From Chryseobacterium nepalense (GTDB lineage: Bacteria; Bacteroidota; Bacteroidia; Flavobacteriales; Weeksellaceae): DNA of 64,000 nt. Made by a program: the position numbers and the translations under genes. Positions 38,488 to 60,618 of this stretch are shown one piece after another. The notes below the pieces were generated by a model. The model made no database searches and had not been told where the DNA came from. It worked only from the letters and a program-made list of their open reading frames with translations. Numbering within the stretch: the first letter of the stretch is position 1; each line of letters opens with the position of its first letter. The stretch is taken from positions 186,001 through 250,000 of the forward strand of contig NZ_CP096203.1 in the NCBI RefSeq assembly GCF_023195755.1, given 5' to 3'.

Positions 38488-38498
38488 ATAAGTCCAAT

Positions 38499-39919: not shown

Positions 39920-40011
39920 TTCATATTCGTATTATTTTATTGAAAATTATTCTTAATCTGATGAAAAGTTTTTAAATTAGTAATAGAATAAAAACTAAAC
40001 CAACCACAATA

Positions 40012-45695: not shown

Positions 45696-45740
45696 TTCCA
45701 TATTATGGAAATGTATTTAAATTTAAATAATTGAAAATCA
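45696..45740 (+). promoter_or_regulatory. Two-part exopolysaccharide promoter element, copy 1
   Basis: Palindrome TTCCATATTATGGAA (45696-45710), 10 nt, then ATTTAAATAATTGAAAATCA (45721-45740), ending 56 nt before the start of the receiver-only gene. Copies 2 and 3 stand before the genes at 52884 and 58311. A -7-like TACGGTTG lies at 45759-45766. Confidence 0.65.
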
Positions 45741-45796
45741 TATACTTATGTAAAAGGTACGGTTGTGGGGAGCTTATTCTATAAATTAATTATAAA

Positions 45797-46234
45797 ATGG
45801 AAAACACTCACAACCTGAAGCTTTTTATTGTAGATGATGATCAATTCTGCTCAAGCATGTATGAGCGGTATTTAAAAAATCACCATTACAGTGATATTAC
45901 CATCTTCAGCAACGGCACGGAATGTCTAAATGCGCTTCATCTTAAACCCGATATTATTTTCCTTGATCACAACATGGAGGATCTCAACGGCTTTGAAGTT
46001 CTGAAAAAAATAAAACGCTACGATCCGAATATTTATGTAATTATGGTTTCGGCGCAGCAAAGTATTGACACCGCTGTAGATACGCTTAAATACGGTACTT
46101 TCGATTATTTGGTAAAAGGAAATGATGTCTGCGAAAAAATGAAGGAGACCATAGAAAAGATTGTAAGCATCAGGCAGGAAATGGCCCAGAATAAATTTAA
46201 AACAATCAGAAGGTTTTTTTCATTTTTATTTTAA
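45797..46234 (+). CDS. Receiver-only response regulator
   Basis: A 145-residue single receiver domain with acidic pocket DDD (13-15), phosphoacceptor D57 in IIFLDHNMED, and the late Lys in DYLVK; no output domain. Its sequence follows the receiver of the sigma-54 activator closely (shared patterns NGTECLNALxxxPDII and KYGTFDYLVK versus KECLSALxxxPDII and KLGAKDYIVK), so it is a paralogue of that domain. It may be a phosphate sink, or act on the exopolysaccharide machinery directly: the exporter gene follows after 4 nt. It is preceded by the first copy of the two-part promoter element and thus opens the exopolysaccharide transcript. Confidence 0.92.
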   Translation: MENTHNLKLFIVDDDQFCSSMYERYLKNHHYSDITIFSNGTECLNALHLKPDIIFLDHNMEDLNGFEVLKKIKRYDPNIYVIMVSAQQSIDTAVDTLKYGTFDYLVKGNDVCEKMKETIEKIVSIRQEMAQNKFKTIRRFFSFLF

Positions 46235-46238
46235 AGCC

Positions 46239-46970
46239 ATGTTGAAAAAATTACTCTTTTACGCAGTTGTCCTACTGTCGGTGCTTTCGTGCAAGACGTA
46301 TAACGTTCTGGAAGAAGAAAAAGCCACACGGAATATGCAGGATTTCAGCTTTGATCCGTCCTATCAGTACAGGATCAGGAAAGATGATAAAATTACCTTG
46401 TCGGTATGGGGGCAGGATGATCTAAGTGTAGGCTCGGTGTACGGAATCTATAACTCCAATGAAGTGTACGGAAAATGGCTTCTGGTAGATGCCGGCGGAA
46501 ATATTGAAATTCCGAGGCTGGGAACTACGCCGGTGATCGGGAAATCCGTTCCGGAACTTAAAGAAGAAATAAAAAACAAGCTTAAAAAATGGCTGGTGAA
46601 TCCCATTGTTGATGTAAAAGTGCTCAACAAGGAAATTTCAGTGATGGGAGAAGTCCGTAATCCTGCGGTAATCCAGGTTGATAAAGATCAGAATACTCTG
46701 CTGGAGCTGGTCTCCAAAGCCGGAGGTTTTGAAATGTATGCCAATCTGAAATCAGTCAAAATATTAAGACAGGAAGGCGAAAATGTGAGGGTAACCAATA
46801 TAGATCTTACTCAGATGAAGGATATTCCTAATCAGAATATTGTACTGCATCCCGGAGATTACGTTATTGTTCCTTCCAAAAAAAGCAAAGACTTCGATAA
46901 GCGAATTTCTACCATTATCCCGTTTGCTACGGTTACATCTGCTGCGGCAATATTATTCGGAATGTTATAA
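46239..46970 (+). CDS. Wza-like polysaccharide export lipoprotein
   Basis: An outer-membrane polysaccharide export protein. Lipobox LSCK with acylated Cys18, a polysaccharide export domain beginning at YRIRKDDKITLSVWGQDDLSV (about 45-65) with IPRLGTTPVIGKSVPELK, then an SLBB domain (EISVMGEVRNPAVIQV, LLELVSKAGGF, LHPGDYVIVP). A short C-terminal hydrophobic stretch (FATVTSAAAILFG) may be the membrane anchor helix. At 243 residues it is the small form common in Bacteroidota. It forms the outer-membrane exit of the polymer with the Wzc-like protein, whose gene follows after 8 nt. Confidence 0.93.
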   Translation: MLKKLLFYAVVLLSVLSCKTYNVLEEEKATRNMQDFSFDPSYQYRIRKDDKITLSVWGQDDLSVGSVYGIYNSNEVYGKWLLVDAGGNIEIPRLGTTPVIGKSVPELKEEIKNKLKKWLVNPIVDVKVLNKEISVMGEVRNPAVIQVDKDQNTLLELVSKAGGFEMYANLKSVKILRQEGENVRVTNIDLTQMKDIPNQNIVLHPGDYVIVPSKKSKDFDKRISTIIPFATVTSAAAILFGML

Positions 46971-46978
46971 CGATTACC

Positions 46979-49126
46979 ATGAACAACGAGAATGTAAGAT
47001 TTTTAAAACCTCTGTTAAGAGGGCTTCCCATTGTAATTGCCGTGATGGTGATTTCCGTATTGGGTGCAAAAAAATACCTTAATTACGTTACCCCGATGTA
47101 CGAAAGTACTGCCAAACTGAAATTGGCAGACACCCAGGAAGGTGTTCCCAGTGCCAATCTTTTTAAAGATTTTGATGTCTTTGCATCGCCCAATAAAATA
47201 AGCACTGAAATTGAAGTCCTGAAATCAACATCATTAATCGAAAAAACACTCGGAAAATTACCTTTTTCAACGGAAATATACCGAAAAGGAAAAGTCCGTT
47301 CCGTAGAATTATTCAATGATTCTCCCATTAAGGTAGAAGCAACTTTTAATGATAAAAAAAACGATGATAAAAAATTTCAGCTTGTTGTCACTTCCCAAAA
47401 TCAATACACTTTATTAGTCCCGGATTCATCAAAAGAAATAAAAGGAACTTTCAGTATTCCGGTAAACATCAAAGGCGGAAAAATAATAATCTCAAAAAAT
47501 GAAGAGTATCTTTCGGGAAAACGGGACGCAAAGATCATTGATCAGTATGAGTTTGAATTTCTGAGCAGGGAAAAACTTTTAGATAAAATCAATAAAGACC
47601 TGGATATTGTTGCAGTTGATAAAGATGTTCCCGTTATCAGGATCAATTTTAAAAGTAATGTGCCTGAAAAAGCTTCACTCTTTGTAAATACGCTGGCTGA
47701 AACTTATATTCAGGATTATATAGAAAATAAATACCGCGCTGCCAATACCACGGTAGATTTTCTTAAAGGTGAGATCGGACAGGCCAACAACAAGCTTTCG
47801 GATGCCGAAAACAGGATAGAACATTACAGGGAAAAGGAAAATATCATCAATATCCCGCAGGAAACCGAAACGGATCTCAGGAAAATTGCACAGCTGAAAA
47901 TTCAGAAAAGCAATATTAAAATGAATCTTGATGCCATCAAAAGTCTTAACAGCTATGTAGAAAATGGAAAAGATAATTTTCCTGATCTGGCCACGAATTT
48001 TGAGGCTTTCAACGATCTTCTTTCAACGGAAATGATCAAAAATATCAAACAGCTGCAAGCTGAAAAAAAAGAACTTCTTCTTACCTACACTCCCGAACAT
48101 GAAAAAGTGAAAACCATCGATGCTAAAATAAAAGATCTTACCGATTATCAGATCGAAAGTATTAAAAATACACAGAATAATCTCCAGATCAAGTATAATG
48201 ATCTGAACCGCGATATCAATGTTGCCGAACAGGCTTTTGTAGGGCTGCCGGAAAAAGAAAAACTGCTCAACATTATGAACAGGGAATTTAATCTTTATGA
48301 GAAAAATTATAACTTCCTGAATGAAAAAAGGATAGATGCGGAAATTGCCAAATCTGCCAAAATTTCTTTTCATAAAATCATTACCAGAGGAGAGCTTCCC
48401 GAACACCCGGTGTCTCCCATGCGCTCCATTATCATTATTGTTGCCGCTGTTGTGGGAATGATCGGTTCAATCATATTGATTTATGCTGTTCATTTTGCCA
48501 AAGCTAAAGTAAATGATATTTACACCATTGAAAAAAATAGTTCAGTTCCTGTTGCTTTTACGACACCTTATATCAGAAATAAAGACCAGGTAATGCACCA
48601 TTTCCTTGAAAATATCCTCGAGATGGATCTCAAAGGTATTCTTAAAGAAAAAAAAGTCATCTGTCTTACCTCTTACGACGATGCTTCTCAGCATGCTTTT
48701 CATGCAGAACATATGATAAAGGCGTTAAATGCTCAGTCAAGAAATATATTGGTAGTTGATGTTGCCGGAACATTAAAAAATACAATCGGAGGTCAGTATA
48801 TCCATTGTTCAGCGGAAGAAAACCTTCAGCATACTGCTCATGAAATGGAAGAGATCATCCGCCGGAATATGGAAGATAAAGACCTCTGCATTATTAATAA
48901 TCAGGCTATAAAACAGGGAAAACTTCCCTTGATGTTCCTGAAACTTGCCGATCAGAATATTTTTCTGCTGGACAGCCGGAAAACTGCCGCCCGAAATATC
49001 ATGAATGTAGAACTCCTGAAAGATGAATACCGTCTTGATAATCTATGGTTTGTCCTAAACAAAGAAGGATACAACCCAAGCCTGATGACCACAATTATGA
49101 AGATGCTGAAAAAATTCAGATCATGA
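46979..49126 (+). CDS. Wzc-like chain-length/export protein with degenerate kinase domain
   Basis: An inner-membrane co-polymerase of the Wzz/Wzc class: Wzz domain with a first membrane helix (about 13-33), a long periplasmic coiled coil including GNVR-like region (about 240-470), the motif PEHPVSPMRS, and a second membrane helix (about 483-505). The C-terminal cytoplasmic part (about 520-715) has the position and length of a BY-kinase, but where Walker A (usually GEGKT/S) should be there is ICLTSYDDASQHAFH (about 557-571), the Walker A' acid block reads ILVVDVAG, and no C-terminal tyrosine cluster exists. It is therefore a predicted pseudokinase. It overlaps the flippase gene by 4 nt. Confidence 0.9.
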   Translation: MNNENVRFLKPLLRGLPIVIAVMVISVLGAKKYLNYVTPMYESTAKLKLADTQEGVPSANLFKDFDVFASPNKISTEIEVLKSTSLIEKTLGKLPFSTEIYRKGKVRSVELFNDSPIKVEATFNDKKNDDKKFQLVVTSQNQYTLLVPDSSKEIKGTFSIPVNIKGGKIIISKNEEYLSGKRDAKIIDQYEFEFLSREKLLDKINKDLDIVAVDKDVPVIRINFKSNVPEKASLFVNTLAETYIQDYIENKYRAANTTVDFLKGEIGQANNKLSDAENRIEHYREKENIINIPQETETDLRKIAQLKIQKSNIKMNLDAIKSLNSYVENGKDNFPDLATNFEAFNDLLSTEMIKNIKQLQAEKKELLLTYTPEHEKVKTIDAKIKDLTDYQIESIKNTQNNLQIKYNDLNRDINVAEQAFVGLPEKEKLLNIMNREFNLYEKNYNFLNEKRIDAEIAKSAKISFHKIITRGELPEHPVSPMRSIIIIVAAVVGMIGSIILIYAVHFAKAKVNDIYTIEKNSSVPVAFTTPYIRNKDQVMHHFLENILEMDLKGILKEKKVICLTSYDDASQHAFHAEHMIKALNAQSRNILVVDVAGTLKNTIGGQYIHCSAEENLQHTAHEMEEIIRRNMEDKDLCIINNQAIKQGKLPLMFLKLADQNIFLLDSRKTAARNIMNVELLKDEYRLDNLWFVLNKEGYNPSLMTTIMKMLKKFRS

Positions 49127-50349
49127 AAAATATTTTTAAAATCGTACAAAAACATTCTTTTCTTGTCTTGGCTGACCAGATGATATTCAGCGGATCTAAT
49201 TTTCTGCTGGCATTTCTTCTTGCCAGGAAATTAAGCATTTCAGGTTTCGGATTTTTTTCATCCGTTCTTTTGATAACCTATCTTTTGGTTGCGGTTTCTA
49301 ATGCGCTTATTGTACAGCCATTTCAGATTCTGGCGGCGAAAGAATTCGGTAAAAAATCACTGGGGTTTGTATTTCAGGCTGCACTGTTGCTGCTATTGAT
49401 TTTTGCTTTGCTGATATTTTCGTCTGCATTTTTACCGTTTTCAGTTTTGACAATTTTTCAGCATCATATTTTTTCTATTATAATTTTTATATCAGCATAT
49501 ATTTTACAGGATTTTCTGAGAAAAGTGTTGCTGATAACAGACAAGATTAAGCTTGTACTTATTATCGACAGTATTTTTCTCCTCGTTTTTCCCCTAATCG
49601 CTATCCAGGAAAATCTTTCGCCCGGTAAAAGTTTGATGATCGTTGGATGGGTTAATGGTATCGCTTCCATACCGGGAATCTACCATATCGTAAGGAATTC
49701 GGATTTGAGCATTAAAAATTCCGCTCTCTGGAAGTATCACTGGAATGCGGGAAAATGGCTCGTAAGTGCATCCCTTTTACAGTGGTTTTCATCAAATTTC
49801 TTTACGTTGGCTGCCGGAATATATTTAGGGGCGAGTGCGTTGGGAGCTTTACGACTGGTGCAGTCGTTTTTTGGAGTCATCAATATTATCCTGCAGACAG
49901 TAGAAAATTATTATATTCCTAAAACAGCAAAGCTGTACTATGAGGATCAGGAATCAGCAAGAAAAACACTGTTTAAAAATATGGTACAGTGGATGACGGC
50001 CCTTGGAATCGTCATCGGGTTATTCTTCGTTTTTTCCCAACCGCTGATTGCTTTGCTTGGCGGTGAAAAATACCTTCAGTACGGGTTTGTAGTAAGGCTC
50101 ATTTCGGTACTGTACCTTTTGATTATTTACAGTTACCCAACCCGCATTTCCATTAGGGTGCTTGAACAGAATAAAGCATTTTTTACCGGATATTGTATTT
50201 CTTTTTTATTTTCTGTTCTCAGCTTTCATTTTTTATTACAATTCGGAGGATTGTACGGAGCCGTGGGCGGACTCGCCATGAATCAGATTCTGATGATTGC
50301 TTACTGGAAAATTCTCCTCAACAAAAAAAAGATTTCACTATGGACATAG
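49123..50349 (+). CDS. Wzx-like polysaccharide flippase
   Basis: A polytopic membrane protein with about 11-12 hydrophobic helices, of the polysaccharide transport/MATE-like group that flips undecaprenyl-linked repeat units. The start used, at 49123, overlaps the preceding stop codon in ATGA; upstream in-frame ATG would add a hydrophilic piece lying inside the Wzc-like gene. The first helices read LADQMIFSGSNFLLAFLLARKLSISGFGFFSSVLL, and a late VVRLISVLYLLIIYSYPTRISIRVLEQNKAFF is typical. It ends inside the start of the next glycosyltransferase gene (10 nt overlap), so translation is coupled. Confidence 0.85.
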   Translation: MKNIFKIVQKHSFLVLADQMIFSGSNFLLAFLLARKLSISGFGFFSSVLLITYLLVAVSNALIVQPFQILAAKEFGKKSLGFVFQAALLLLLIFALLIFSSAFLPFSVLTIFQHHIFSIIIFISAYILQDFLRKVLLITDKIKLVLIIDSIFLLVFPLIAIQENLSPGKSLMIVGWVNGIASIPGIYHIVRNSDLSIKNSALWKYHWNAGKWLVSASLLQWFSSNFFTLAAGIYLGASALGALRLVQSFFGVINIILQTVENYYIPKTAKLYYEDQESARKTLFKNMVQWMTALGIVIGLFFVFSQPLIALLGGEKYLQYGFVVRLISVLYLLIIYSYPTRISIRVLEQNKAFFTGYCISFLFSVLSFHFLLQFGGLYGAVGGLAMNQILMIAYWKILLNKKKISLWT

Positions 50350-51458
50350 TACATCTTATATTAGGAAAAGCAAACCCCGAGAAAATGAACGGGGTGAACA
50401 AAGTTGTTTTTAACATTGCTTCCAAGCAGGCTTCGCAAAAGATGAAAGTGGAAGTTTGGGGTATTTCGAAAAATACAGAAATTAATTATCCTGCGAGAGT
50501 ATTTATCACAAAAATTTTTAAAAGAAGGAAAAATCCCTTTTCCATTCCGGAAGGATTGAAAAAAGAAATTCTGAAAAGCCGTCAGGAAACAATCTTTCAT
50601 TTTCATGGCGGATGGATTCCTGTATTTTCCTCATTGAGCCGGTTTTTAAAGAAAAATAACCGCAGATACGTGATCACGCCGCATGGTTCCTATAACGAAA
50701 TTGCAATGAAGAAAAGCAGATTTATTAAAATGCTGTACTTCAGGTGGTTTGAAAAAAAAGTTATCATCGATGCCCAAAAAATTCACTGTATCGGAGAAAG
50801 CGAAATCGATGGCCTTCAAACGCTTCAGCGTACTGATAAAACGGTTTTAATTAATTACGGATTTGAAAAAATAAATTCAGATCGTAATACAGCTACAGCA
50901 AATGGACCTATTGTTTTTGGTTTCGTAGGCAGGCTTGATGTGTACACAAAAGGACTTGATCTTTTGATTGAAAGTTTCACAGCATTTTCTAAAAAATATC
51001 CGGAATCCCGGCTGTGGCTTATCGGAGATGGTGCGGAAAAAGAAAAGCTTCATCAGCAGATTAAACAAAATAATCTTGAGAATAAAGTAGAACTGATGGG
51101 CAGTAAATTTGGAAAAGAAAAAAATGACCTTATCCGGAAAATGGATGTTTTTCTGCACCCTTCAAGAAATGAAGGTCTTCCGGTTTCTGTTATTGAAGCG
51201 GCTGCTTTCGGCAAACCTTGTATTGTAACCAGAAATACGAATGTAGGGCATCTTATAGAAAAATATAATGCTGGTATTTGCATAGCCCTTCCTGAATCAA
51301 AACTTCTTACTGATGCTTTAATTAAAATCTGCAACATACGGGAAAAAAATAAACAGGAATATCAGATGATGGGCAATAATGCCTTAAAAATGGTAGAACA
51401 AGCCTTTAACTGGAATACAATTCTTGATGAAATGAACAGAAAATTATACACTTTCTGA
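50340..51458 (+). CDS. Glycosyltransferase, family GT4
   Basis: A GT-B fold glycosyltransferase with Glycos_transf_4-like N-terminal and GT4 C-terminal domains. The first is seen as MNGVNKVVFNIASKQ, and the second carries FGFVGRLDVYTKGLDLLIESF near 195, LIGDGAEKEKLHQQI, and the E-x7-E type donor site in FLHPSRNEGLPVSVIEAAAFGKPCI near 280. It is soluble or peripheral and would add one sugar to the lipid-linked repeat unit. The start at 50340 overlaps the flippase stop region by 10 nt. Donor and linkage are unknown. The polymerase gene follows after 1 nt. Confidence 0.9.
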   Translation: MDIVHLILGKANPEKMNGVNKVVFNIASKQASQKMKVEVWGISKNTEINYPARVFITKIFKRRKNPFSIPEGLKKEILKSRQETIFHFHGGWIPVFSSLSRFLKKNNRRYVITPHGSYNEIAMKKSRFIKMLYFRWFEKKVIIDAQKIHCIGESEIDGLQTLQRTDKTVLINYGFEKINSDRNTATANGPIVFGFVGRLDVYTKGLDLLIESFTAFSKKYPESRLWLIGDGAEKEKLHQQIKQNNLENKVELMGSKFGKEKNDLIRKMDVFLHPSRNEGLPVSVIEAAAFGKPCIVTRNTNVGHLIEKYNAGICIALPESKLLTDALIKICNIREKNKQEYQMMGNNALKMVEQAFNWNTILDEMNRKLYTF

Positions 51459-51459
51459 A

Positions 51460-52749
51460 ATGCAAACACCCACTACAGAACATCAGCGCTTTCTCAAAAA
51501 GATCAACAATCAGCTTTTTATTATTCTGCTGCTTATGGTGGCTTGTTTTTTTACGTGGAGTGAAAACGTAGCCATTACGAGAGCCATAAAAGTTGTCGGC
51601 AGAATGGGAGTGATGATTTCATCTATAATCGTTTATTACAGAATTATTTCTTACGGAAGTGTTAATTCATTAGTATATAAAAATATATTTTCACCGATTT
51701 TATATATTGCCTATCTTATCTTAGGCTTTATATCGTTTTCCTGGAGCACCAATCCGGGATTTAGTGCTTTGCAATGGTTTATGACTTTTCAAAGTTTTGT
51801 TTTTGCTTATTTTTTTGTGAAGAGCCTAGCGATACTTGATGTCTATTTTGAAGGTCATTCAATACGGCTGTATCATCTTTTAGGAAATACGGTTTTTGTA
51901 CTGCAGCTGGTTTTTGTGATCGGCATGTGGACGAATCCCGACGTTTTTTTCCGTCTTACGGACGGAGGGGAAGAAGCCCGTCTGGGGGGAACTTTAATGA
52001 ACCCCAACGAATTGGGAATGCTTGCCGGAGTAGGTTCTGCATGCCTGATTTTTAATCTTTACAGGTTTAAAAATAAAGTCTGGACCATCATCAAAATTAT
52101 GATCATTTTATATGCATTATATATGACCGGTTCAAGGTCTTCGCTGATTGGTGTTCTGCTGATCATATTTTTTCATGTTAACCAAACCAAACGGAAAGGA
52201 CTGAAGCTGGGCATTATTGCAGTGGTTTTGGCAATAGCACCATTTGCAGTGTACACGGTCATTCTTAAAGGCGGAGACCAGTCCAGGCTGGAAGAAGTGA
52301 TGAGCCTTACGGGAAGATTGCCTTTCTGGAAAGCCCTTATTACAGAAGGGTTGCCCAGGGAACCTCTTCTGGGCTTCGGTTTTATGAGGATTGACTATAA
52401 AGAATTCTTTCAGAGTGCTCATACCTATCCCGGAAAAATGACGCACAATACCTTTATGCAGGTACTTATGAACCTCGGTTTTATCGGTTTTACCATCGTT
52501 CTTTTTCAGGTATTTTTTACTGTTAAATCAATACTTTCCGCACAGAAGGAACTAAAACTTATGCTGATTGGTATTCTGATACCTATCCTCATCAACTCGT
52601 TCACGGAATTCGGAATTTTCGGAGAAAGTAACTATGGAATATTATTTTATCAGATCATTATTTTCTCAATTGCATTCCGCAATAATAATCATCTTACGAG
52701 AATACAAAGAATAATTCTTCAAAAGAAAAGACCGGATATGATGGGGTAA
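51460..52749 (+). CDS. Wzy-like O-antigen/exopolysaccharide polymerase
   Basis: An integral membrane protein with about 10-12 hydrophobic helices and a large outer loop between late helices, as in the Wzy/WaaL polymerase-ligase family. The O-antigen ligase pattern is visible as GGTLMNPNELGMLAGVGSACL (about 168-188), MTGSRSSLIGVLLI (about 222-235), and the loop GRLPFWKALITEGLPREPLLGFGFM followed by AHTYPGKMTHNTFMQVLMNLGFIG. It should join repeat units in the periplasm. It ends the first exopolysaccharide transcription segment; a new promoter element follows. Confidence 0.88.
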   Translation: MQTPTTEHQRFLKKINNQLFIILLLMVACFFTWSENVAITRAIKVVGRMGVMISSIIVYYRIISYGSVNSLVYKNIFSPILYIAYLILGFISFSWSTNPGFSALQWFMTFQSFVFAYFFVKSLAILDVYFEGHSIRLYHLLGNTVFVLQLVFVIGMWTNPDVFFRLTDGGEEARLGGTLMNPNELGMLAGVGSACLIFNLYRFKNKVWTIIKIMIILYALYMTGSRSSLIGVLLIIFFHVNQTKRKGLKLGIIAVVLAIAPFAVYTVILKGGDQSRLEEVMSLTGRLPFWKALITEGLPREPLLGFGFMRIDYKEFFQSAHTYPGKMTHNTFMQVLMNLGFIGFTIVLFQVFFTVKSILSAQKELKLMLIGILIPILINSFTEFGIFGESNYGILFYQIIIFSIAFRNNNHLTRIQRIILQKKRPDMMG

Positions 52750-52773
52750 TTCGAGTTTAAAAATTAGACTTTA

Positions 52774-52829
52774 TTCCAGAATATGGAAAAAGGGTATCTT
52801 TTTTATTGTATTTAAATTATTGATAATCA
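52774..52829 (+). promoter_or_regulatory. Two-part exopolysaccharide promoter element, copy 2
   Basis: Palindrome TTCCAGAATATGGAA (52774-52788), 21 nt, then ATTTAAATTATTGATAATCA (52810-52829), ending 54 nt before the start of the fusion gene. An exact -7-type box TATTTTTG follows at 52838-52845. Confidence 0.65.
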
Positions 52830-52883
52830 AATAATTATATTTTTGGCAGCGTATTTATATCTCTTTGTATAAAAGCAAGAATT

Positions 52884-55190
52884 ATGAAGACTTTATTTAA
52901 AAATACAGGATATAAATTATACACCACAGAACAGCCTGAAAGTTTTAAAATATCTTTTTCTTACATCAGAAACACAGACGGTTCTTTACGCTGGTTTTGG
53001 AATTCAAAATCAAAAAAACCATTGTTTTTAAAATTTTATAATGCTTCTTCTTTTAAAGCAAAATTATATGCAATTGCTGTAAAACTGGTATTTGAACTTG
53101 GTCTGCAAAATCTGATCTTCGAAAAAGAAATCTTATACTATAAAGTTGAGGGAAATCCTATTTTCAATATCAAATCAGACTGGGCCATGTTCACCGGAAC
53201 ACCCGGACCTAATAATAAGGCTCTGTTGTATACAGCGGGGAGTTTTTATAAAATTGCCTGTACGGAAACAGCAAAAGACCTGTTGATCAATGAATTTGCC
53301 AACATGCGCTTTGCTTCCGCCAGCCGGTTATATACTGTTCCGAAAACGGTCTTACACAACGGCAATATTCTACAGACCGATGATATATCAAAAAAAGGCA
53401 AGCGAAGCAATACCTTTGGAAGAATTCATGCTAAAACAGTGCAGGGTATTACACAGAAATATCAGCGGTGTTGTTCAATATCAGAATGGGGGTATTTTCA
53501 GATGCTGAAAAAAGAAATCAATACATTAAGCGATGAAAGAATACCGTCGAATCTGCTAAGGAAGCTGAATTCCCTATTGGAAAAAGTAGATGAAACCGAA
53601 CGTATCAGCCTTTCTTTTTCTCACGGTGATTTCACTCCATGGAATTGTTTTCTTCACCATAATACGCTGTCGGTTTACGATTGGGAACTGGCTTCCTGCG
53701 AAAAGCCTAAAGGATTCGATTTCTTTCATTTCATTATTCAGAAAGGAATTTTAATTGATAAAAGACCTTGGAAATCTATCCTAGACGAAATTAGACATAA
53801 AAACAGGCTTACTTTTCATTTTAATGAAGATGAATTGTATCATCACCTGAAATTTTATCTTTTAATCAACATATCAGTTTACCTTAAAATATATTCGGAA
53901 CAAAAGGAATGGCATCTTCAGATTCATTGGCTGCTGAAGACCTGGACAGAAGCGCTGAACCATTTTGCAAAAGAAATATATACGGAAAGGGAGCTGTTGA
54001 TCATGGATATTTTTGACAGTCTTCACACGATTCCTTATGCAGCGTTGAAATTTCACGATAAGAAACCTGAAAAGCTGAGCCTTAATTCTGACATTGATAT
54101 TCTGATGTCTTCGCAAAATGCAGAAGGATTAATTCGTTTTCTGAAAAGGAACAGTCTTGCAGAACGTGTGGTAGTTTCAAAAAAATCATATATGTACAGG
54201 GTCAGGATTATTACAAATGACAAGCAGATTCTTCATCTTGACCTGATCCTGAAAATCCAGTGGAAAGGTTTTGAATTTATGAATGTGAATAAAGTCATCA
54301 AGCACTCCGTTTCAAATGAATATGGTGTTAAAACAGCCTGCGACAGTGATACCGCCAAATACCTGCATTACTTCTATACTCTTAACGGCAGTGAGATACC
54401 GGAATATTACAGAGATTTTACTGAAAAAAATATTTCAGAAAATAAGCTTGTAAAAATAACGGACCATATTAATCAGCTGAAAATGAATACAAAACGAAGA
54501 ATATCCTTTTTAAAAGACACATTCATATATATCAAAGACACATTCTCAGAAAAAGGATTTGTTATGACCTTCAGCGGTGTTGACGGTGCCGGAAAATCAA
54601 CAGTCATTTCGGAAATTTCGAATCTTATCGAAAAACGGTACCGCAGACCGGTGAAAATTTTAAGGCACAGACCTTCTTTACTACCGATTTTAAGCGTCTG
54701 GATAAAAGGGAAAGAAAAAGCGCATCTCGATGTAGTCAGTTCATTGCCAAGACAAGGCAGCAATAGCAACACATTTTCGTCTTTTGCAAGGTTCTGTTAT
54801 TATTATACGGATTACATCATCGGGCAGTTTATTATTTATCTGAAATATGTTTTGCGCGGTAAGGTTGTTCTGTATGACCGGTATTATTTTGATTTTATGG
54901 CCGATGCCCGAAGGAGTAATATTAAACTTCCCAAATCAATTGCCGAAAGCGGATATTTTTTCTTAATGAAACCGAAGTTCAACTTCTTCCTGTATGCATC
55001 ACCAGAGAAGATTCTCAGCAGAAAAGAAGAACTTTCTTATCAGTCGATCTCCTATCTCAATGCAGAATACAATAAACTGTTCTCGAAACTGGGAAAGCAT
55101 AATAACAGTGCAAAATACATTGCAATTGAGAATAATGATCTGAATGACACTTTAGATATCATCATGAACAGCATTATCACAGCAAAATGA
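52884..55190 (+). CDS. APH-like kinase + nucleotidyltransferase-like + thymidylate-kinase-like fusion
   Basis: A 768-residue protein that appears to join three nucleotide-using modules. The first part (about 120-360) has the aminoglycoside phosphotransferase/choline kinase motif HGDFTPWN at 247-254 and the metal-binding Asp in YDWE at 266. The middle (about 375-500) has a nucleotidyltransferase-like NSDIDILM at 401-408. The last part (about 555-768) has the thymidylate-kinase-like P-loop GVDGAGKST at 565-573 and an LYDRYYFDF block near 663. It has no signal peptide. Under its own promoter in an exopolysaccharide cluster, with the acyltransferase gene overlapping by 4 nt, it may phosphorylate a sugar or lipid. 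Function unknown; domain calls from motifs. Confidence 0.72.
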   Translation: MKTLFKNTGYKLYTTEQPESFKISFSYIRNTDGSLRWFWNSKSKKPLFLKFYNASSFKAKLYAIAVKLVFELGLQNLIFEKEILYYKVEGNPIFNIKSDWAMFTGTPGPNNKALLYTAGSFYKIACTETAKDLLINEFANMRFASASRLYTVPKTVLHNGNILQTDDISKKGKRSNTFGRIHAKTVQGITQKYQRCCSISEWGYFQMLKKEINTLSDERIPSNLLRKLNSLLEKVDETERISLSFSHGDFTPWNCFLHHNTLSVYDWELASCEKPKGFDFFHFIIQKGILIDKRPWKSILDEIRHKNRLTFHFNEDELYHHLKFYLLINISVYLKIYSEQKEWHLQIHWLLKTWTEALNHFAKEIYTERELLIMDIFDSLHTIPYAALKFHDKKPEKLSLNSDIDILMSSQNAEGLIRFLKRNSLAERVVVSKKSYMYRVRIITNDKQILHLDLILKIQWKGFEFMNVNKVIKHSVSNEYGVKTACDSDTAKYLHYFYTLNGSEIPEYYRDFTEKNISENKLVKITDHINQLKMNTKRRISFLKDTFIYIKDTFSEKGFVMTFSGVDGAGKSTVISEISNLIEKRYRRPVKILRHRPSLLPILSVWIKGKEKAHLDVVSSLPRQGSNSNTFSSFARFCYYYTDYIIGQFIIYLKYVLRGKVVLYDRYYFDFMADARRSNIKLPKSIAESGYFFLMKPKFNFFLYASPEKILSRKEELSYQSISYLNAEYNKLFSKLGKHNNSAKYIAIENNDLNDTLDIIMNSIITAK

Positions 55191-55927
55191 AAATATTGAT
55201 TGAGAAAATTGTAAAAATGAGAAACCCGGATTTCACGGTAGACCCCGGTTTGAATTCCGGTGCGGTTATGCAGATGATCTGGATTCAGGCGTGCAGTATG
55301 CTCCGCGGATTAAGCGTTCTTTTATTTCTTAAAAATCCAAAAGGAATGTTATTGGGAAAACGGGTAGGTTTTTTTAACCTTTCCAAAATAAAATGGGGAC
55401 AGTTTTTAAGATTGGGGAATGACGTCTATGTTTCCGCACTGGGAAAGAAAGGAGTGGAGTTTGGCAATAATGTTTCCATCGGGGCTTTCAGCCGGATTAT
55501 TCTATCCACTTCCATGAACAATATCGGAGAACAGATCAAAATAGGAAATAATGTCGGTATCGGAGAATTTGCCTATCTCGGTGGTGCAGGAGGATTGGAA
55601 ATTGGTGATGACTGCATTGCAGGACAATACTTAAGCTGTCACCCGGAAAATCATAATTATGAAAATCCTGATGTTTTCATCCGCCTTCAGGGGGTAAGCC
55701 GGAAAGGAATTAAAATAGGAAGAAACTGCTGGATCGGAAGCAAAGTTACCATTCTGGACGGTGTGAAAATAGGGGAAGGAAGCATTCTGGCAGCAGGAAG
55801 CGTTATCACAAAATCATTCCCCGCAAACAGTATCATCGCAGGAGTTCCTGCAAAACTAATAAAAACAAGAAATTATGAAAACGAATCAGACTATATTGGC
55901 GAGTTGCTATGCCGTAAATCCATATAA
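55187..55927 (+). CDS. Left-handed beta-helix O-acyltransferase (acetyltransferase)
   Basis: A 246-residue hexapeptide-repeat acyltransferase of the colanic-acid/serine acetyltransferase type, likely decorating the exopolysaccharide with acetyl groups. Hexapeptide turns are visible from VEFGNNVSIGAFSRIILST through KIGNNVGIGEFAYLG and IGRNCWIGSKVTILDGVKIGEGSILAAGSVI, ending in the family close IIAGVPAKLIK. The active histidine is likely in the SCHPENHNYE loop (about 148-157). It overlaps the fusion gene by 4 nt and the following glycosyltransferase by 53 nt. Confidence 0.9.
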   Translation: MKILIEKIVKMRNPDFTVDPGLNSGAVMQMIWIQACSMLRGLSVLLFLKNPKGMLLGKRVGFFNLSKIKWGQFLRLGNDVYVSALGKKGVEFGNNVSIGAFSRIILSTSMNNIGEQIKIGNNVGIGEFAYLGGAGGLEIGDDCIAGQYLSCHPENHNYENPDVFIRLQGVSRKGIKIGRNCWIGSKVTILDGVKIGEGSILAAGSVITKSFPANSIIAGVPAKLIKTRNYENESDYIGELLCRKSI

Positions 55928-57107
55928 AGGATCCGAAGATGCAATGGGCTGGAATTTTGTATGCCAGATTGCGAGATTCCGGAAAGTAATTGCGATTACC
56001 CGGGAAAACAACAGGGCAAATATAGAAAAATACATTTCAGAACACCCGGACGGTGTGCACAGAAATATCACCTTCCTTTATTTTGACCTTCCTTACTGGA
56101 TGAGGTTCTGGAAAAAAGGCAGCAGAGGAGCATTGCTGTACTATTACCTATGGCAAAAAGGCATCGTTTCTTTCATCAAAAAACAGAAACTGGATTTTGA
56201 TATCACCCACAATATAAATTTCCATAATGACTGGACCCCGAGTTTTCTCTGGAAACTCCGTAAACCAATGGTTTGGGGTCCGGTAGGGCATCACCCGCTG
56301 ATTCCGGGTCAGTACTTAAATATGTATTCGAAAACACATTTTATAAAAGACAGGCTTACGTGGATGGTTAAGAATTTTTTCTGGAAATTTTCGTCTTCAT
56401 TACAAAATACCATCAGACATTCCGGACATATCTGGTGTATGAATACCAGTGTTCCGCAGAAACTGAATCTCGCTGAAAGTTCCTATTCTCTGTGTCCTTC
56501 AGTTGCAACGGAAGATTTTAAGAAACACGAGGAAATCAGCCCTAAATCAGGATTTACGGTAATAAGTGTGGGAAGGTTTGTCCCTCTAAAAGGTTTTGAT
56601 TTAACGATACGCTCATTTATAGAATTTATTAATCAGCTTCCGGAAAAAAAACAGTCCGAATGCAAACTCATCCTTGTAGGAGCAGGAGAACAGAAAGCGC
56701 TCTACGAAAGCCTGATTGAACGCAGCGGAATGAATGATTTCATTGAAATTAAAGAATGGGTAGAGCGTAAAGAACTTATGAAACTGTATGACAGTGCTTC
56801 GGTATTTCTTTTTCCTTCCCACGAAGGTGCCGGAATGGTAGTGCCTGAAGCGCTCTGTTTCGGTTTGCCGGTGATCTGCCTGCAAAATGAAGGTCCCGGA
56901 GAATTTATCAATCATTCCTGTGGTATTGCCGTTCCGAAGCAGAGTTATAAAAAAACATTGGAAGAATTGAGTCTTGCTTTGATAAGAGTGTATTTAGATG
57001 AGCCTCTCAGAAAAAAATTAAGCCTGGGAGCCAGAAAACAATATGTTGAAAAGTTTTCATGGGAGAAGAGGGGAGAGCACCTGGATGAAATTTATAGCAA
57101 AATGTGA
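55875..57107 (+). CDS. Glycosyltransferase, family GT4
   Basis: A GT-B fold glycosyltransferase, 410 residues. The N-terminal domain carries CYAVNPYKGSEDAMGWNF and HNINFHNDWTPSFLWKL, features of the group with a glycine-serine-glutamate acceptor loop; the C-terminal domain has VISVGRFVPLKGFDLTIRSF near 220 and the donor site FLFPSHEGAGMVVPEALCFGLPVI near 310-335. The start lies 53 nt inside the preceding acyltransferase gene, an unusually long overlap; a later in-frame start would remove conserved N-terminal residues. The next gene begins 1 nt after its stop. Confidence 0.9.
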   Translation: MKTNQTILASCYAVNPYKGSEDAMGWNFVCQIARFRKVIAITRENNRANIEKYISEHPDGVHRNITFLYFDLPYWMRFWKKGSRGALLYYYLWQKGIVSFIKKQKLDFDITHNINFHNDWTPSFLWKLRKPMVWGPVGHHPLIPGQYLNMYSKTHFIKDRLTWMVKNFFWKFSSSLQNTIRHSGHIWCMNTSVPQKLNLAESSYSLCPSVATEDFKKHEEISPKSGFTVISVGRFVPLKGFDLTIRSFIEFINQLPEKKQSECKLILVGAGEQKALYESLIERSGMNDFIEIKEWVERKELMKLYDSASVFLFPSHEGAGMVVPEALCFGLPVICLQNEGPGEFINHSCGIAVPKQSYKKTLEELSLALIRVYLDEPLRKKLSLGARKQYVEKFSWEKRGEHLDEIYSKM

Positions 57108-57108
57108 T

Positions 57109-58182
57109 ATGAACAGAATTGTAGCCATACATTTATTAAACGACTATAGCGGAAGCCCGAAGGTATTAATGCAGCTTCTAAAAACCTGGACAGGAAAAAA
57201 TATAGAAGTTCACTTATTTACTTCCGGCGGGAGTACAGGCTTTTTATCAGATTTGCCTAAAGTAGCCCGCCATCTGATTTGGTACCGGTTTTCTCAGAAC
57301 CCACTGATAAAAATCTGTAACTTTTTTATCAGTCAGCTTTTTCTTACGATTAAGCTTCTGTTATTCCTGAAAAGGGAAGATATTATCTACATTAATACCG
57401 TGCTTCCTTTTGGAGCAGCTATTGCGGGAAAATTACGGGGCTGCAGAATAATTTATCATATCCATGAAACTTCCGTAAAACCTAGAATTTTTAAAGATTT
57501 TCTGTTCGGAATCGCAAGATTAACGGCTTCAAAAGGGGTTTTTGTTTCAGATTATCTGATGAAAAAAGAACCGATTGTTCAAAATCAGGTACTTCTCTAT
57601 AATGTTCTGGAGCGCGAATTTGCCGAAAAGGCAGATCAATCCCATGGTATTTACGGTAAAGAACCTATTATTTTAATGATCTGCTCTTTAAAGTCTTACA
57701 AAGGGGTAGATGAATTTGTAAAACTTGCAGAAATAAACAGTACGTATCTTTTTAAACTGGTGCTGAATGCTTCGCAGAAGGAGATCGATATTTATTTTAA
57801 AGGAAAAACTTTACCGGATCATCTTAAAATTTATCCAACCCAGACTGATACCCATTCTTTTTACCGGGAAGCAAGCATTATTGTTAACCTTTCCCGACCG
57901 GATGAATGGGTAGAAACTTTCGGATTAACGATTCTGGAAGGAATGCGCTACCGGCTTCCTGCAATAGTCCCGCCGGTGGGAGGAATCACAGAACTGGTAA
58001 ACGAAAATAAAAACGGTTTTCTTATTAATTCTGCAGACGTATATGAGCTGTCCGGCAAAATCCATTATCTAATGTGTAATGAAGAAATTTACAAATCTTT
58101 CAGCGAATCGGCATATCAAAAAAGCCTGATGTTTTCAGAAGATTATTTTGAAGAAACCTGTGTGCAGATGATTTCCATTTAA
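57109..58182 (+). CDS. Glycosyltransferase, family GT4
   Basis: A 357-residue GT-B glycosyltransferase. The ATG at 57109 is chosen because it yields the typical opening MNRIVAIHLLNDYSGSPKV 1 nt after the upstream stop; an in-frame ATG further up lies within the preceding gene. The C-terminal domain contains ILMICSLKSYKGVDEFVKLA near 185 and the donor-binding DEWVETFGLTILEGMRYRLPAIV near 265-290, with the second Glu of the E-x7-E pattern. The segment YINTVLPFGAAIAGKLRGCRIIYHIHE is the acceptor-side strand region. Last gene of the second exopolysaccharide segment. Confidence 0.9.
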   Translation: MNRIVAIHLLNDYSGSPKVLMQLLKTWTGKNIEVHLFTSGGSTGFLSDLPKVARHLIWYRFSQNPLIKICNFFISQLFLTIKLLLFLKREDIIYINTVLPFGAAIAGKLRGCRIIYHIHETSVKPRIFKDFLFGIARLTASKGVFVSDYLMKKEPIVQNQVLLYNVLEREFAEKADQSHGIYGKEPIILMICSLKSYKGVDEFVKLAEINSTYLFKLVLNASQKEIDIYFKGKTLPDHLKIYPTQTDTHSFYREASIIVNLSRPDEWVETFGLTILEGMRYRLPAIVPPVGGITELVNENKNGFLINSADVYELSGKIHYLMCNEEIYKSFSESAYQKSLMFSEDYFEETCVQMISI

Positions 58183-58191
58183 CGGTTGTTT

Positions 58192-58246
58192 TTCCGGAAT
58201 TTGGAATGATGGTCATTTAATTTTTAATTTAAATATTTGAAAATCA
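58192..58246 (+). promoter_or_regulatory. Two-part exopolysaccharide promoter element, copy 3
   Basis: Palindrome TTCCGGAATTTGGAA (58192-58206), 20 nt, then ATTTAAATATTTGAAAATCA (58227-58246), ending 64 nt before the start of the next glycosyltransferase gene. Block two differs from copies 1 and 2 at only one to three positions. Confidence 0.65.
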
Positions 58247-58310
58247 GTTATTTGTAATTTAATTTGAATTTGGAATATCAATAGTATAGCTTTTATAAAA
58301 ATATAATCGT

Positions 58311-59531
58311 ATGAAAACTAAAGTAGCTATTATCGGAACTGTCGGACTTCCTGCCCGATACGGCGGATTTGAAACCCTTACAGAACATCTTGTAGAAGAA
58401 CTTTCTGATACTTATGATTTTACGGTGTACTGTTCATCAAAAAAATACAGCAGTGAAGAAAGAAAAGAAAGCTGGAAAGGTAGCAGACTTAAATACATTC
58501 CTCTTGATGCAAACGGAATTCAGAGCATATTCTACGACAGCTGGTCTATCCTGCATGCATTGCGTGGCAGTGATGTGTTGCTCATTCTCGGAGTTGCGGG
58601 GGCGTGGCTTCTGCCTTTTGTAAGAATGTTCACCAATAAAAAAATAATTATTTCTATTGACGGAATCGAATGGAAGAGAGATAAATGGCCGCTGGCTGCA
58701 AAACTATATTTGTGGTTTGCAGAAAATCTGGCCGTAAAATATTCCCATATTGATATTTCAGATAACGAGTCAATTCAGGATTATACGTCTTTACGGTATG
58801 AAACCATCAGCAGGGTTATTGAATATGGTGCAGATCATACGAGAGTAAATGCTGCTCCCTCAGAACAGGATTTTGTGACCTATCCTTTTTTATCAAAGCC
58901 ATATGCGGTAAAAGTATGCCGGATAGAGCCCGAAAATAATGTTTTAACGATTTTAAAAGTTTTTAGTGAAAATCCTGAACATCATCTTGTGGTAGTCGGT
59001 AATTGGGAAAACAGTCATTATGGAAAAGATCTGAAGCAAAAATTTTCTGTTTTTGAGAATATCAGTCTTCTTGATCCTATTTATGACCAGCATACATTAG
59101 ATATGATCCGCGGGAATGCTTTTCTGTACATTCACGGGCATTCGGCAGGAGGAACCAATCCTTCTCTGGTAGAAGCGATGTTTTTGGGGCTGCCTGTTAT
59201 CTGCTATGGCGTTTCTTATAACAGAACGACAACAGGCGACCAGGCCTTCTATTTTTCTGATGAGAAAGAGCTGGAAAACCTCCTTAAGACCCTTACGCAG
59301 GATGATATTAAGAAATGCGCTTTGAGAATGAAAAAAATTGCGGAAAATAAATATGTATGGAATACTGTCGCCGAAAAGTACAGCCAGGTTATTCAGGAGA
59401 GTTTTTCGGTTACAGCAAAGAAAAATGTCTATCCTGAAATTTCAAGGCTGGATAAAAAAATGCTTGAAAAATATAATATCAGTCATCTGCAGAATATACA
59501 GTTATTTAACAATGCTAAAAGCAGGATTTAA
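58311..59531 (+). CDS. DUF1972/GT4 glycosyltransferase, rhamnosyltransferase-like
   Basis: A 406-residue glycosyltransferase with an N-terminal DUF1972 domain, marked by IIGTVGLPARYGGFETLTEHLVEEL and LLILGVAGAWLLPFVR, and a GT4 domain with YIHGHSAGGTNPSLVEAMFLGLPVI near 275-298. DUF1972 proteins include the beta-1,4-rhamnosyltransferases of streptococcal capsules (Cps2T/WchF), which transfer rhamnose as an early step. A rhamnosyl donor role is therefore plausible, but the window has no dTDP-rhamnose synthesis genes. It is paired with the WecA-like gene (13 nt gap) under its own promoter element, fitting a role early in repeat-unit assembly. Confidence 0.88.
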   Translation: MKTKVAIIGTVGLPARYGGFETLTEHLVEELSDTYDFTVYCSSKKYSSEERKESWKGSRLKYIPLDANGIQSIFYDSWSILHALRGSDVLLILGVAGAWLLPFVRMFTNKKIIISIDGIEWKRDKWPLAAKLYLWFAENLAVKYSHIDISDNESIQDYTSLRYETISRVIEYGADHTRVNAAPSEQDFVTYPFLSKPYAVKVCRIEPENNVLTILKVFSENPEHHLVVVGNWENSHYGKDLKQKFSVFENISLLDPIYDQHTLDMIRGNAFLYIHGHSAGGTNPSLVEAMFLGLPVICYGVSYNRTTTGDQAFYFSDEKELENLLKTLTQDDIKKCALRMKKIAENKYVWNTVAEKYSQVIQESFSVTAKKNVYPEISRLDKKMLEKYNISHLQNIQLFNNAKSRI

Positions 59532-59544
59532 AAAATAAACCATT

Positions 59545-60618
59545 ATGAAAAATTTTACAGAACTTACCGTGTATGGGCTTCTTGCTTTTACCCTGTCGAT
59601 CTGCATCATTCCGCTGATGACGATGGTTGCCCAAAAATTTAAATTAGTTGATGTTCCTAACGCCCGGAAGGTGCATCAGAAAGCCATTCCGCTTATTGGT
59701 GGCTTAGCGATAGGTATTATCGTGGCATTGCTTGGCGGATTAACCAGCATGAAGGATGTAGAGGAAATCTTACCGATAATCATTACTTCTTATATAATGC
59801 TTCTGGTGGGGACTATGGATGATAAAACAGATATCAAGGCAATCTATAAGTTAGGAATTCAGATTTGTATAAGTATTATTATTGCTTCTTCAGGAATAAG
59901 AATTACCTCTTTATACGGACTTTTCGGAATCTATGAAATTGACGTGCTTGCTCAATATATAATTACGGTGCTGGTGATTGCAGCTGCAGTGAATGCCTTT
60001 AACCTTATTGATGGTATAGACGGACTGGCAGGAAGCGTTGCCGGAATTGGCTTCATTTTGCTTTTAGCGATTGCCGTTATCGAAAAAAATTACGGTTTGA
60101 TGAAACTGGTGATGTTATTTATAGGAGGTATTGCTGCTTTTCTCAGATATAATTTTTCAAAAAAGAATAAAGTTTTCCTGGGAAATTCGGGATCACTATT
60201 CTTAGGATATTTTCTGGTGTCAATAGGAATTTATATATCAAAATTTGATCATCCGGCGTCCGGTTTCCCTCATGGATTATTTTTCCTGTTATTTGTGTTT
60301 ACCATCCCGATGATCGACTCCGTGAGAGTATATGCAGACCGGGTATTGCAGGGTAAATCACCTTTTAACGCAGATAAATCCCATATTCATCATTACCTTC
60401 TGCAGCTGGGAATATCACATAAAAAAATTACAGTACTTTTTGTGGTGATGAATATTTCCATATTTGCTGCACAATACATCTTTCTGAAAAGCTTTTCCAT
60501 ATATACCTTTCTGGTATCATTGATTGCTTTTGTGGCCATTTTTAAATGCATTAAAGTTCTTAATTTCTTTACCATATGGAAAACTAAAGTAAAAGAACTG
60601 GAAAATAATGCACAATGA
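59545..60618 (+). CDS. WecA/TagO-like undecaprenyl-phosphate sugar-1-phosphate transferase
   Basis: An integral membrane enzyme of the MraY/WecA family with about 10-11 helices, 357 residues. It should start the repeat unit by moving a HexNAc 1-phosphate (usually GlcNAc) from UDP-sugar to undecaprenyl phosphate. Family motifs: DVPNARKVHQKAIPLIGGLAIG (about 32-53), the DDxxD metal site in GTMDDKTDIKAIYKLG (about 88-103), NAFNLIDGIDGLAGS (about 150-164), FLGNSGSLFLGY (about 212-223), and the HIHH loop (about 279-282). It is the last gene of the exopolysaccharide cluster and is followed by a terminator. Confidence 0.92.
   Translation: MKNFTELTVYGLLAFTLSICIIPLMTMVAQKFKLVDVPNARKVHQKAIPLIGGLAIGIIVALLGGLTSMKDVEEILPIIITSYIMLLVGTMDDKTDIKAIYKLGIQICISIIIASSGIRITSLYGLFGIYEIDVLAQYIITVLVIAAAVNAFNLIDGIDGLAGSVAGIGFILLLAIAVIEKNYGLMKLVMLFIGGIAAFLRYNFSKKNKVFLGNSGSLFLGYFLVSIGIYISKFDHPASGFPHGLFFLLFVFTIPMIDSVRVYADRVLQGKSPFNADKSHIHHYLLQLGISHKKITVLFVVMNISIFAAQYIFLKSFSIYTFLVSLIAFVAIFKCIKVLNFFTIWKTKVKELENNAQ

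What the first reader, a model, noticed from the sequence alone, without database searches (positions are those of the whole stretch)
45696..58246. Two-part promoter element repeated before three exopolysaccharide transcription units
Seen directly: a 15-bp palindrome TTCC-N7-GGAA (45696, 52774, 58192) is followed by a 20-nt block, ATTTAAAT-WW-TTGA-W-AATCA, at 45721, 52810 and 58227 (W is A or T). The 20-nt block has 17 of 20 invariant positions across the three copies. The gap between the two parts is 10, 21 and 20 nt, close to one or two helical turns, and the block ends 54-64 nt before a start codon each time. A weaker relative of the second block lies before the sigma-54 activator gene (about 39935). 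This suggests a cis-code coordinating three segments of one polymer pathway, with the palindrome facing the same side of the helix. The binding protein is not known; the nearby NtrC-type activator is a candidate.
Basis: seen in the sequence. Interest (0 to 1): 0.75.

Follow-up and report, generated by a model that had tools for sequence, protein, structure and literature searches.

The report
Sigma-54 enhancer switch for exopolysaccharide genes
In a Chryseobacterium, three neighbouring groups of predicted sugar-polymer genes each begin with the same three-part DNA switch, also found before the matching genes of many relatives across the Bacteroidota, which likely lets one nearby activator, helped by a DNA-bending protein, switch all three groups on together.

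Summary
In 91 non-duplicate loci the palindrome precedes the orthologous first genes in 82 of 88, 56 of 61 and 24 of 24 usable cases, against 1 of 86 and 0 of 85 for two internal genes. De novo motif finding recovered parts 2 and 3 unprompted. In this genome the palindrome/ATTTAAAT pair occurs only at these three promoters, whereas the dyad is a genome-wide site. Best explanation: the adjacent NtrC-type activator binds the palindrome as enhancer, an IHF/HU-family protein bends the dyad, and sigma-54 polymerase is activated at all three units. Sigma-54 use and activator identity are supported by comparison; the bending protein is inferred. It works like the proteobacterial PrsK/PrsR circuit but fails the tests made for that family. 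No bench evidence. New variant of a known kind.

The parts
40012..41361 (+). NtrC-type sigma-54 activator (receiver, AAA+ with GSFTGA loop, C-terminal helix-turn-helix); predicted binder of the palindrome
   Evidence: Pfam PF00072, PF00158, PF25601; sequence; co-occurrence with the palindrome
41363..42517 (+). FIST-domain protein, predicted sensor
   Evidence: Pfam PF08495, PF10442
42444..45674 (+). PAS / hybrid histidine kinase / Hpt frame, predicted input kinase
   Evidence: Pfam; frame, true start not set
45696..45710 (+). P1 predicted enhancer TTCC-N7-GGAA
45724..45748 (+). P1 dyad (2 mismatches to consensus), predicted bend site
45756..45769 (+). P1 predicted sigma-54 element GG-N10-GG; start predicted near 45781
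45797..46234 (+). single-domain response regulator, first gene of unit 1
   Evidence: Pfam PF00072
46239..52749 (+). rest of unit 1: export protein, chain-length protein, 434-aa protein of no family, glycosyltransferase, Wzy_C protein
52774..52788 (+). P2 predicted enhancer TTCC-N7-GGAA
52813..52837 (+). P2 dyad (perfect consensus), predicted bend site
52845..52858 (+). P2 predicted sigma-54 element TTGGCA with a poor -12 half (GG-N10-AT); start predicted near 52870
52884..58182 (+). unit 2: 768-aa protein without a clear family, hexapeptide acetyltransferase, two glycosyltransferases
58192..58206 (+). P3 predicted enhancer TTCC-N7-GGAA
58230..58254 (+). P3 dyad (1 mismatch), predicted bend site
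58272..58285 (+). P3 predicted sigma-54 element GG-N10-GT; start predicted near 58297
58311..60618 (+). unit 3: DUF1972/rhamnosyltransferase-like glycosyltransferase and WecA-like initiating transferase

Best explanation
The repeated element is the upstream part of what is most likely a sigma-54 promoter: TTCC-N7-GGAA is the predicted enhancer of the NtrC-type activator encoded next door, the block overlaps a 25-bp dyad likely bent by an IHF/HU-family protein, and a GG-N10 element downstream would be the -24/-12 sequence bound by sigma-54 polymerase. Mechanism (inferred): the FIST/hybrid-kinase module sets the phosphorylation of the activator; the activator assembles on the palindrome, centred about 78, 89 and 98 bp upstream of the predicted starts; the bend centred near -45 or -56 folds the enhancer back onto the polymerase; ATP hydrolysis by the activator opens the promoter, so that the three units of one polymer pathway are switched on together. 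Shown here by sequence comparison: the three parts, their conservation, their helically stepped spacing, the restriction of the palindrome/ATTTAAAT pair to these promoters in this genome, and the wider occurrence of the dyad. Inferred: that sigma-54, this activator and an IHF-like protein bind them, and the input signal.
For: Palindrome before orthologous genes in 82/88, 56/61, 24/24 against 1/86 and 0/85 before internal genes. De novo motifs on 162 palindrome-to-ATG stretches: ttttGGcAt....tT.g and .acTgattatcAa....TTa; scores 984 and 782 against 76 for one shuffled set. GG-N10-G with its T in 110 of 162, shuffles 17.6; five other spacings 7-45. WATCAANNNNTTR exact in 32 of 161 intervals, shuffles 0.9; three wrong-spacing forms plus N6 form 0-2. 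Gaps in helical steps in 147 of 148, 0 of 2000 under two nulls. Palindrome and activator ortholog associated: 81 both, 3 palindrome only, 2 neither, 0 activator only. One RpoN gene, six full-length sigma-54 activator domains, three HU/IHF-family genes. Models from outside the genus score the window's promoters at the same positions.
Against: No bench data. The -12 halves of the window's promoters read GG, AT and GT, not GC, and in the unit-2 class G follows GG-N10 in only 13 of 56. With models from outside the genus 42 of 60 genus stretches pass the shuffled 95th percentile for sigma-54 (56 of 60 for the dyad), and the window's own p values are 0.028-0.038 for sigma-54; those models used positions from a fit on all sequences. 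The activator association rests on two losses, is not corrected for relatedness, and one of the two (L151) is a metagenome assembly. The dyad is symmetric, unlike the classical IHF site, and the IHF-like protein falls under both IHF subunit cut-offs. Five other activators exist in this genome.
Confidence: 0.75

Rival explanations
1. Sigma-54 enhancer promoters as above, but the dyad is the operator of an ordinary dimeric regulator (a repressor or co-activator that gates looping), not an IHF/HU-family bend site.
For: The dyad is nearly perfectly symmetric (matrix against its reverse complement r = 0.97), as for a dimeric regulator; symmetric IHF sites are not the classical form.
Against: It contains WATCAANNNNTTR in both orientations (32 and 23 exact of 161, shuffles 0.9 and 0.6) and is enriched genome-wide and in the class, mostly away from this locus, which suits an architectural protein better. 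A global regulator is not excluded.
Confidence: 0.2
2. The palindrome is read by another of the genome's sigma-54 activators, not by the adjacent one.
For: Six full-length activator domains are present; 3 loci keep the palindrome where no ortholog of the adjacent activator was found.
Against: Adjacency; the two loci without any palindrome before the receiver gene have no ortholog (best 40% identity); four genus genomes lacking the export gene keep activator, receiver gene and palindrome together. The three exceptions are metagenome assemblies.
Confidence: 0.1
3. Ordinary housekeeping promoters of the Bacteroidota type (TTG...TAnnTTTG, consensus recalled), with the palindrome and block as sites of unrelated regulators.
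For: P2 contains one TAnnTTTG overlapping the GG.
Against: TAnnTTTG is in 13 of 162 stretches (shuffles 15.7), the full two-part form in 1 of 162 (shuffles 2.5), and both are absent from P1 and P3.
Confidence: 0.05

Closest known systems
PrsK/PrsR sigma-54 control of PEP-CTERM genes in Proteobacteria (Haft et al. 2006, PMC1569441; section 7 read whole, other passages by find)
   Same: An NtrC-type activator and kinase beside exopolysaccharide genes; an activator motif, a spacer of about 63 nt and a -24/-12 element; PrsR is the best NCBIfam match of this activator.
   Different: Another activator motif (theirs ends in TTTACA, described only for Proteobacteria); here a dyad lies in the spacer and the polymer operons themselves carry the switch; the PrsR cut-off is not met.
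RpoN-dependent PEP-CTERM gene of Aquincola (PMC9850573; passages seen)
   Same: Sigma-54 dependence shown for a gene of an exopolysaccharide/floc system with PrsK/PrsR nearby; a predicted enhancer upstream.
   Different: A PEP-CTERM gene in a proteobacterium; no dyad described in the passages seen.
Enhancer - IHF - sigma-54 promoters of Proteobacteria (nif-type, recalled; IHF consensus from PMC10380432, one passage)
   Same: Order enhancer, WATCAANNNNTTR site, -24/-12; helical phase.
   Different: Symmetric dyad rather than an asymmetric site; one palindrome close to the promoter; no recognised IHF alpha/beta pair.

Membership tests
Sigma-54 enhancer-dependent promoter | -24/-12 element, GG-N10-GC | tested here: met
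   GG-N10-G form in 110 of 162, shuffles 17.6. By class G follows GG-N10 in 79 of 82, 13 of 56 and 23 of 24. Weak point: the window's three read GG, AT, GT.
Sigma-54 enhancer-dependent promoter | cognate AAA+ activator with GAFTGA-type loop and DNA-binding domain, and an rpoN gene | tested here: met
   PF00158 and GSFTGA in the adjacent activator, C-terminal helix-turn-helix seen in the alignment; one Sigma54_DBD gene
Sigma-54 enhancer-dependent promoter | transcription lost without RpoN and activator | not testable with these tools
   needs deletions
PrsK/PrsR (PEP-CTERM) system | activator passes TIGR02915 | tested here: not met
   397.5 bits, cut-off 502.6
PrsK/PrsR (PEP-CTERM) system | activator motif ending in TTTACA | tested here: not met
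   TTTACA in 31 of 173 upstream regions, shuffles 31.3; motif as described in the text of PMC1569441, logo not seen
PrsK/PrsR (PEP-CTERM) system | exosortase and PEP-CTERM proteins in the genome | not tested
   no search made
IHF binding site | WATCAANNNNTTR | tested here: met
   exact in 32 of 161 intervals (shuffles 0.9), up to one mismatch in 87 (shuffles 20.8); window: P2 exact, P1 and P3 one mismatch by eye
IHF binding site | asymmetric site | tested here: not met
   matrix correlates 0.97 with its reverse complement
IHF binding site | IHF alpha and beta subunits encoded | tested here: not met
   best candidate scores 61.3 and 61.0 bits against cut-offs of 120.25 and 119.95 for TIGR00987 and TIGR00988; binding not testable here
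CRP/FNR box (TTGAT-N4-ATCAA, recalled) | N4 between the half sites | tested here: not met
   N4 form 0 of 162; N1 form 5 of 162

The most novel reading that the evidence does not exclude
Bacteroidia use a symmetric, sequence-specific bend site, TAA-N4-YTGATWATCAR-N4-TTA, read by a homodimeric IHF/HU-family protein throughout the genome. At an ancient exopolysaccharide switch this site is locked by helical phase between an activator enhancer and a sigma-54 promoter, giving some 150 natural spacing variants of one DNA loop.
Probability: 0.5. Interest if true: 0.72.

Novelty: new variant of a known kind. Interest (0 to 1): 0.62.

Why it matters
It gives a DNA code, a candidate activator and a sigma factor to an exopolysaccharide locus with relatives across a phylum whose sigma-54 targets are little charted (a 2025 sigma-54 survey, PMC12316311, does not contain the word exopolysaccharide; passages seen). 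The natural promoters, whose gaps differ by whole helical turns, are a ready test set for how enhancer, bend and polymerase must face each other. The genome-wide dyad gives a testable site for a nucleoid protein of Bacteroidia.

Tried and rejected
Rejected: a housekeeping-type promoter; an FNR/CRP box; the PrsR motif ending in TTTACA; autoregulation of the activator gene through the element near 39935; the block as an exopolysaccharide-specific element. The two other strict palindromes of this genome (284625, 3746497) lie inside long reading frames and were not taken as regulon members; looser palindromes of the genome were not followed up.

Led nowhere: paper searches for sigma-54 with exopolysaccharide in Flavobacterium, Bacteroidetes or Chryseobacterium and for the dyad letters showed nothing on this system in their listings; only open-licence papers are held. 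The 434-aa protein has no Pfam match and the 768-aa protein none over cut-off.

Dropped rows: one search kept the best 80 of 129 loci. One search came before that and its 68 loci include one duplicate (L116). 14 of 162 stretches were dropped from the spacing counts. The tallies were typed into to be added up.
Full report
Observation. The three palindromes and three blocks are present as described, with gaps of 10, 21 and 20 nt and 17 of 20 invariant block positions. The paired arrangement occurs three times in the window; of 200 dinucleotide shuffles 3 had one copy and 197 none. In the 3.99-Mb genome the pair with ATTTAAAT occurs only at these three places (G000 row). The same exact pattern turns up somewhere in 74 of 173 genus genomes, mostly elsewhere than at this locus, so the pattern alone is not diagnostic. 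The weak relative near 39935 does not stand (4 to 5 mismatches).

Setting. The window belongs to a Chryseobacterium: the nearest named locus is C. takakiae, 97% identical in the export protein. An activator (receiver, AAA+, helix-turn-helix), a FIST protein and a hybrid kinase precede three collinear units: receiver, export, chain length, glycosyltransferase and polymerase-like genes; a 768-aa protein, acetyltransferase and glycosyltransferases; rhamnosyltransferase-like and WecA-like genes. These are family predictions; the polymer has not been seen.

Comparison. The export protein is found in 18 of 173 genus genomes including this one (E up to 1e-30), the activator in 22 of 173 (E up to 1e-120). 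The best 80 of 129 named loci were taken from the species collection: Flavobacterium, Pedobacter, Marivirga, Saprospiraceae, Balneolaceae and others, plus a few metagenome records with odd labels. After removal of 11 duplicates 91 loci remained. TTCC-N7-GGAA lies within 260 nt upstream of the receiver gene in 82 of 88 usable loci, of the unit-2 gene in 56 of 61 and of the unit-3 gene in 24 of 24; it lies before the export gene in 1 of 86, the chain-length gene in 0 of 85 and the activator gene in 5 of 63; shuffles give 0.2 to 0.7%. With one mismatch allowed 86 of 88 receiver genes have it, 8.8 expected by shuffle. In 68 loci outside the genus set (one a duplicate) 115 intergenic copies stand against 0 to 8 for 15 control patterns.

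Three parts. Expectation-maximisation on the 162 stretches between palindrome and start codon, given no motif, returned ttttGGcAt....tT.g and .acTgattatcAa....TTa. The first fits a sigma-54 -24/-12 element: GG-N10-G with the preceding T is in 110 of 162 against 17.6 by shuffle, while five other spacings gave 7 to 45. The second contains the IHF consensus WATCAANNNNTTR (wording of the consensus: PMC10380432), exact in 32 of 161 intervals against 0.9 by shuffle. Aligned on its centre it is a dyad, TAA-N4-YTGAT-W-ATCAR-N4-TTA, whose matrix correlates 0.97 with its own reverse complement. Models from the 102 stretches outside the genus pass the shuffled 95th percentile in 56 of 60 genus stretches for the dyad and 42 of 60 for sigma-54, and place both elements in the window at the same positions (p 0.002-0.020 and 0.028-0.038); the positions used for training came from a fit on all sequences, so the hold-out is not complete. 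The implied starts lie 14 to 16 nt before each start codon.

Spacing. Of 148 stretches with both motifs scored, the palindrome-to-dyad gap is 16-18 nt in 19, 26-30 in 99, 36 in 4, 45-48 in 25 and 11 in one; the dyad-to-GG gap is 6-8 in 127, 16-19 in 20 and 42 in one. Collapsed to one value per genus label, promoter and length class, the values are more periodic than 2000 draws under each of two nulls, with best periods of 9.4, 11.6 and 9.6 nt. Much of that strength comes from the commonest class; the stepping itself rests on the other classes.

Who binds. Of 86 loci tested, 81 have palindrome and activator ortholog (52% identity or more), 3 have the palindrome with no ortholog found (metagenome assemblies), 2 have neither (F. 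branchiophilum, L132; and L151, a metagenome assembly), none has the ortholog without the palindrome; 2 further loci were not tested (Fisher p 0.0027, not corrected for relatedness). Four genus genomes without a match for the export protein keep activator, receiver gene and palindrome. The recognition helix reads GKS[TK]-[IV]-Y-N in most orthologs, with a few K; G at that last place was seen only in L177 and L179, two of the four loci with an altered palindrome, but L058 and L176 have altered palindromes and an ordinary helix, and the genomes of L177 and L179 hold a second copy with N. That is a hint only. For the dyad the genome has one HU-like protein, one closer to IHF though under the cut-offs, and one distant HU relative. 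The IHF-like one reads LRGFGSF where E. coli IHF reads IRGFGSF in one subunit part (alignment); that this arginine reads TTR, and that the IHF pseudo-dyad falls on the W, are recalled and untested. A homodimer would explain the symmetry; this is inference.

Two scopes. The dyad is not limited to this system: 88 sites with up to 2 mismatches against 16 for the control in this genome; 15 of the 17 sites fetched are intergenic, two of them being P2 and P3; 230 against 19 with up to 1 mismatch over the 24 sampled genomes of the same class, but only 78 against 23 over the 75 other sampled genomes of the phylum. So the palindrome carries the specificity and the dyad looks like general architecture of the class.

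Known relatives. Haft et al. 2006 described an activator motif, a spacer of about 63 nt and a sigma-54 element before PEP-CTERM genes, with the PrsK/PrsR pair, shared only by Proteobacteria among the species discussed. This system works like that one but fails the tests made: TTTACA is at chance, the activator is below the PrsR cut-off, and the polymer operons themselves carry the switch. Eight relatives with an extra palindrome before a giant secreted protein (see noticed in passing) hint that cargo control exists here too. I found no description of this Bacteroidota circuit in the listings, which cover open-licence papers only.

Limits. All evidence is comparative. The unit-2 class has a poor -12 half (G after GG-N10 in 13 of 56) and the window's own -12 halves are GG, AT and GT. 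Sigma-54 use, activator binding and bending need bench tests.

Noticed in passing
L147, L150, L156, L158, L162, L165, L168, L175, about position 4500-4650: An extra TTCC-N7-GGAA stands before a secreted-looking protein of 1534-1554 aa upstream of the receiver gene. The L150 copy has FG-GAP repeats and a T9SS sorting domain over cut-off; L156 and L158 showed no such domain in NCBIfam. Possibly a matrix protein under the same switch.
   Followed up: partly
L118 at 3775, L124 at 3860: A palindrome with a GG element faces a divergent gene of 234-236 aa beside the activator.
   Followed up: no
L097, L099, L101 (unnamed genus genomes) and L095: Activator, kinase, receiver gene and palindrome are kept without a match for the export protein; L095 looks like a decayed locus that keeps all three palindromes.
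   Followed up: partly
L131, L137, L138, L181 (Flavobacterium), near position 16500: A terminator-like hairpin with a T run lies between palindrome and predicted promoter of unit 2, seen by eye.
   Followed up: no
genome 3445258-3445282 and 3445370-3445394 (L221, L222): Two dyads 112 bp apart in one intergenic region with no exopolysaccharide palindrome in the stretch shown.
   Followed up: no
window 37582-39770: A family 88 glycoside hydrolase and an esterase-like gene, divergent from the activator gene; possible polysaccharide-degrading neighbours.
   Followed up: no
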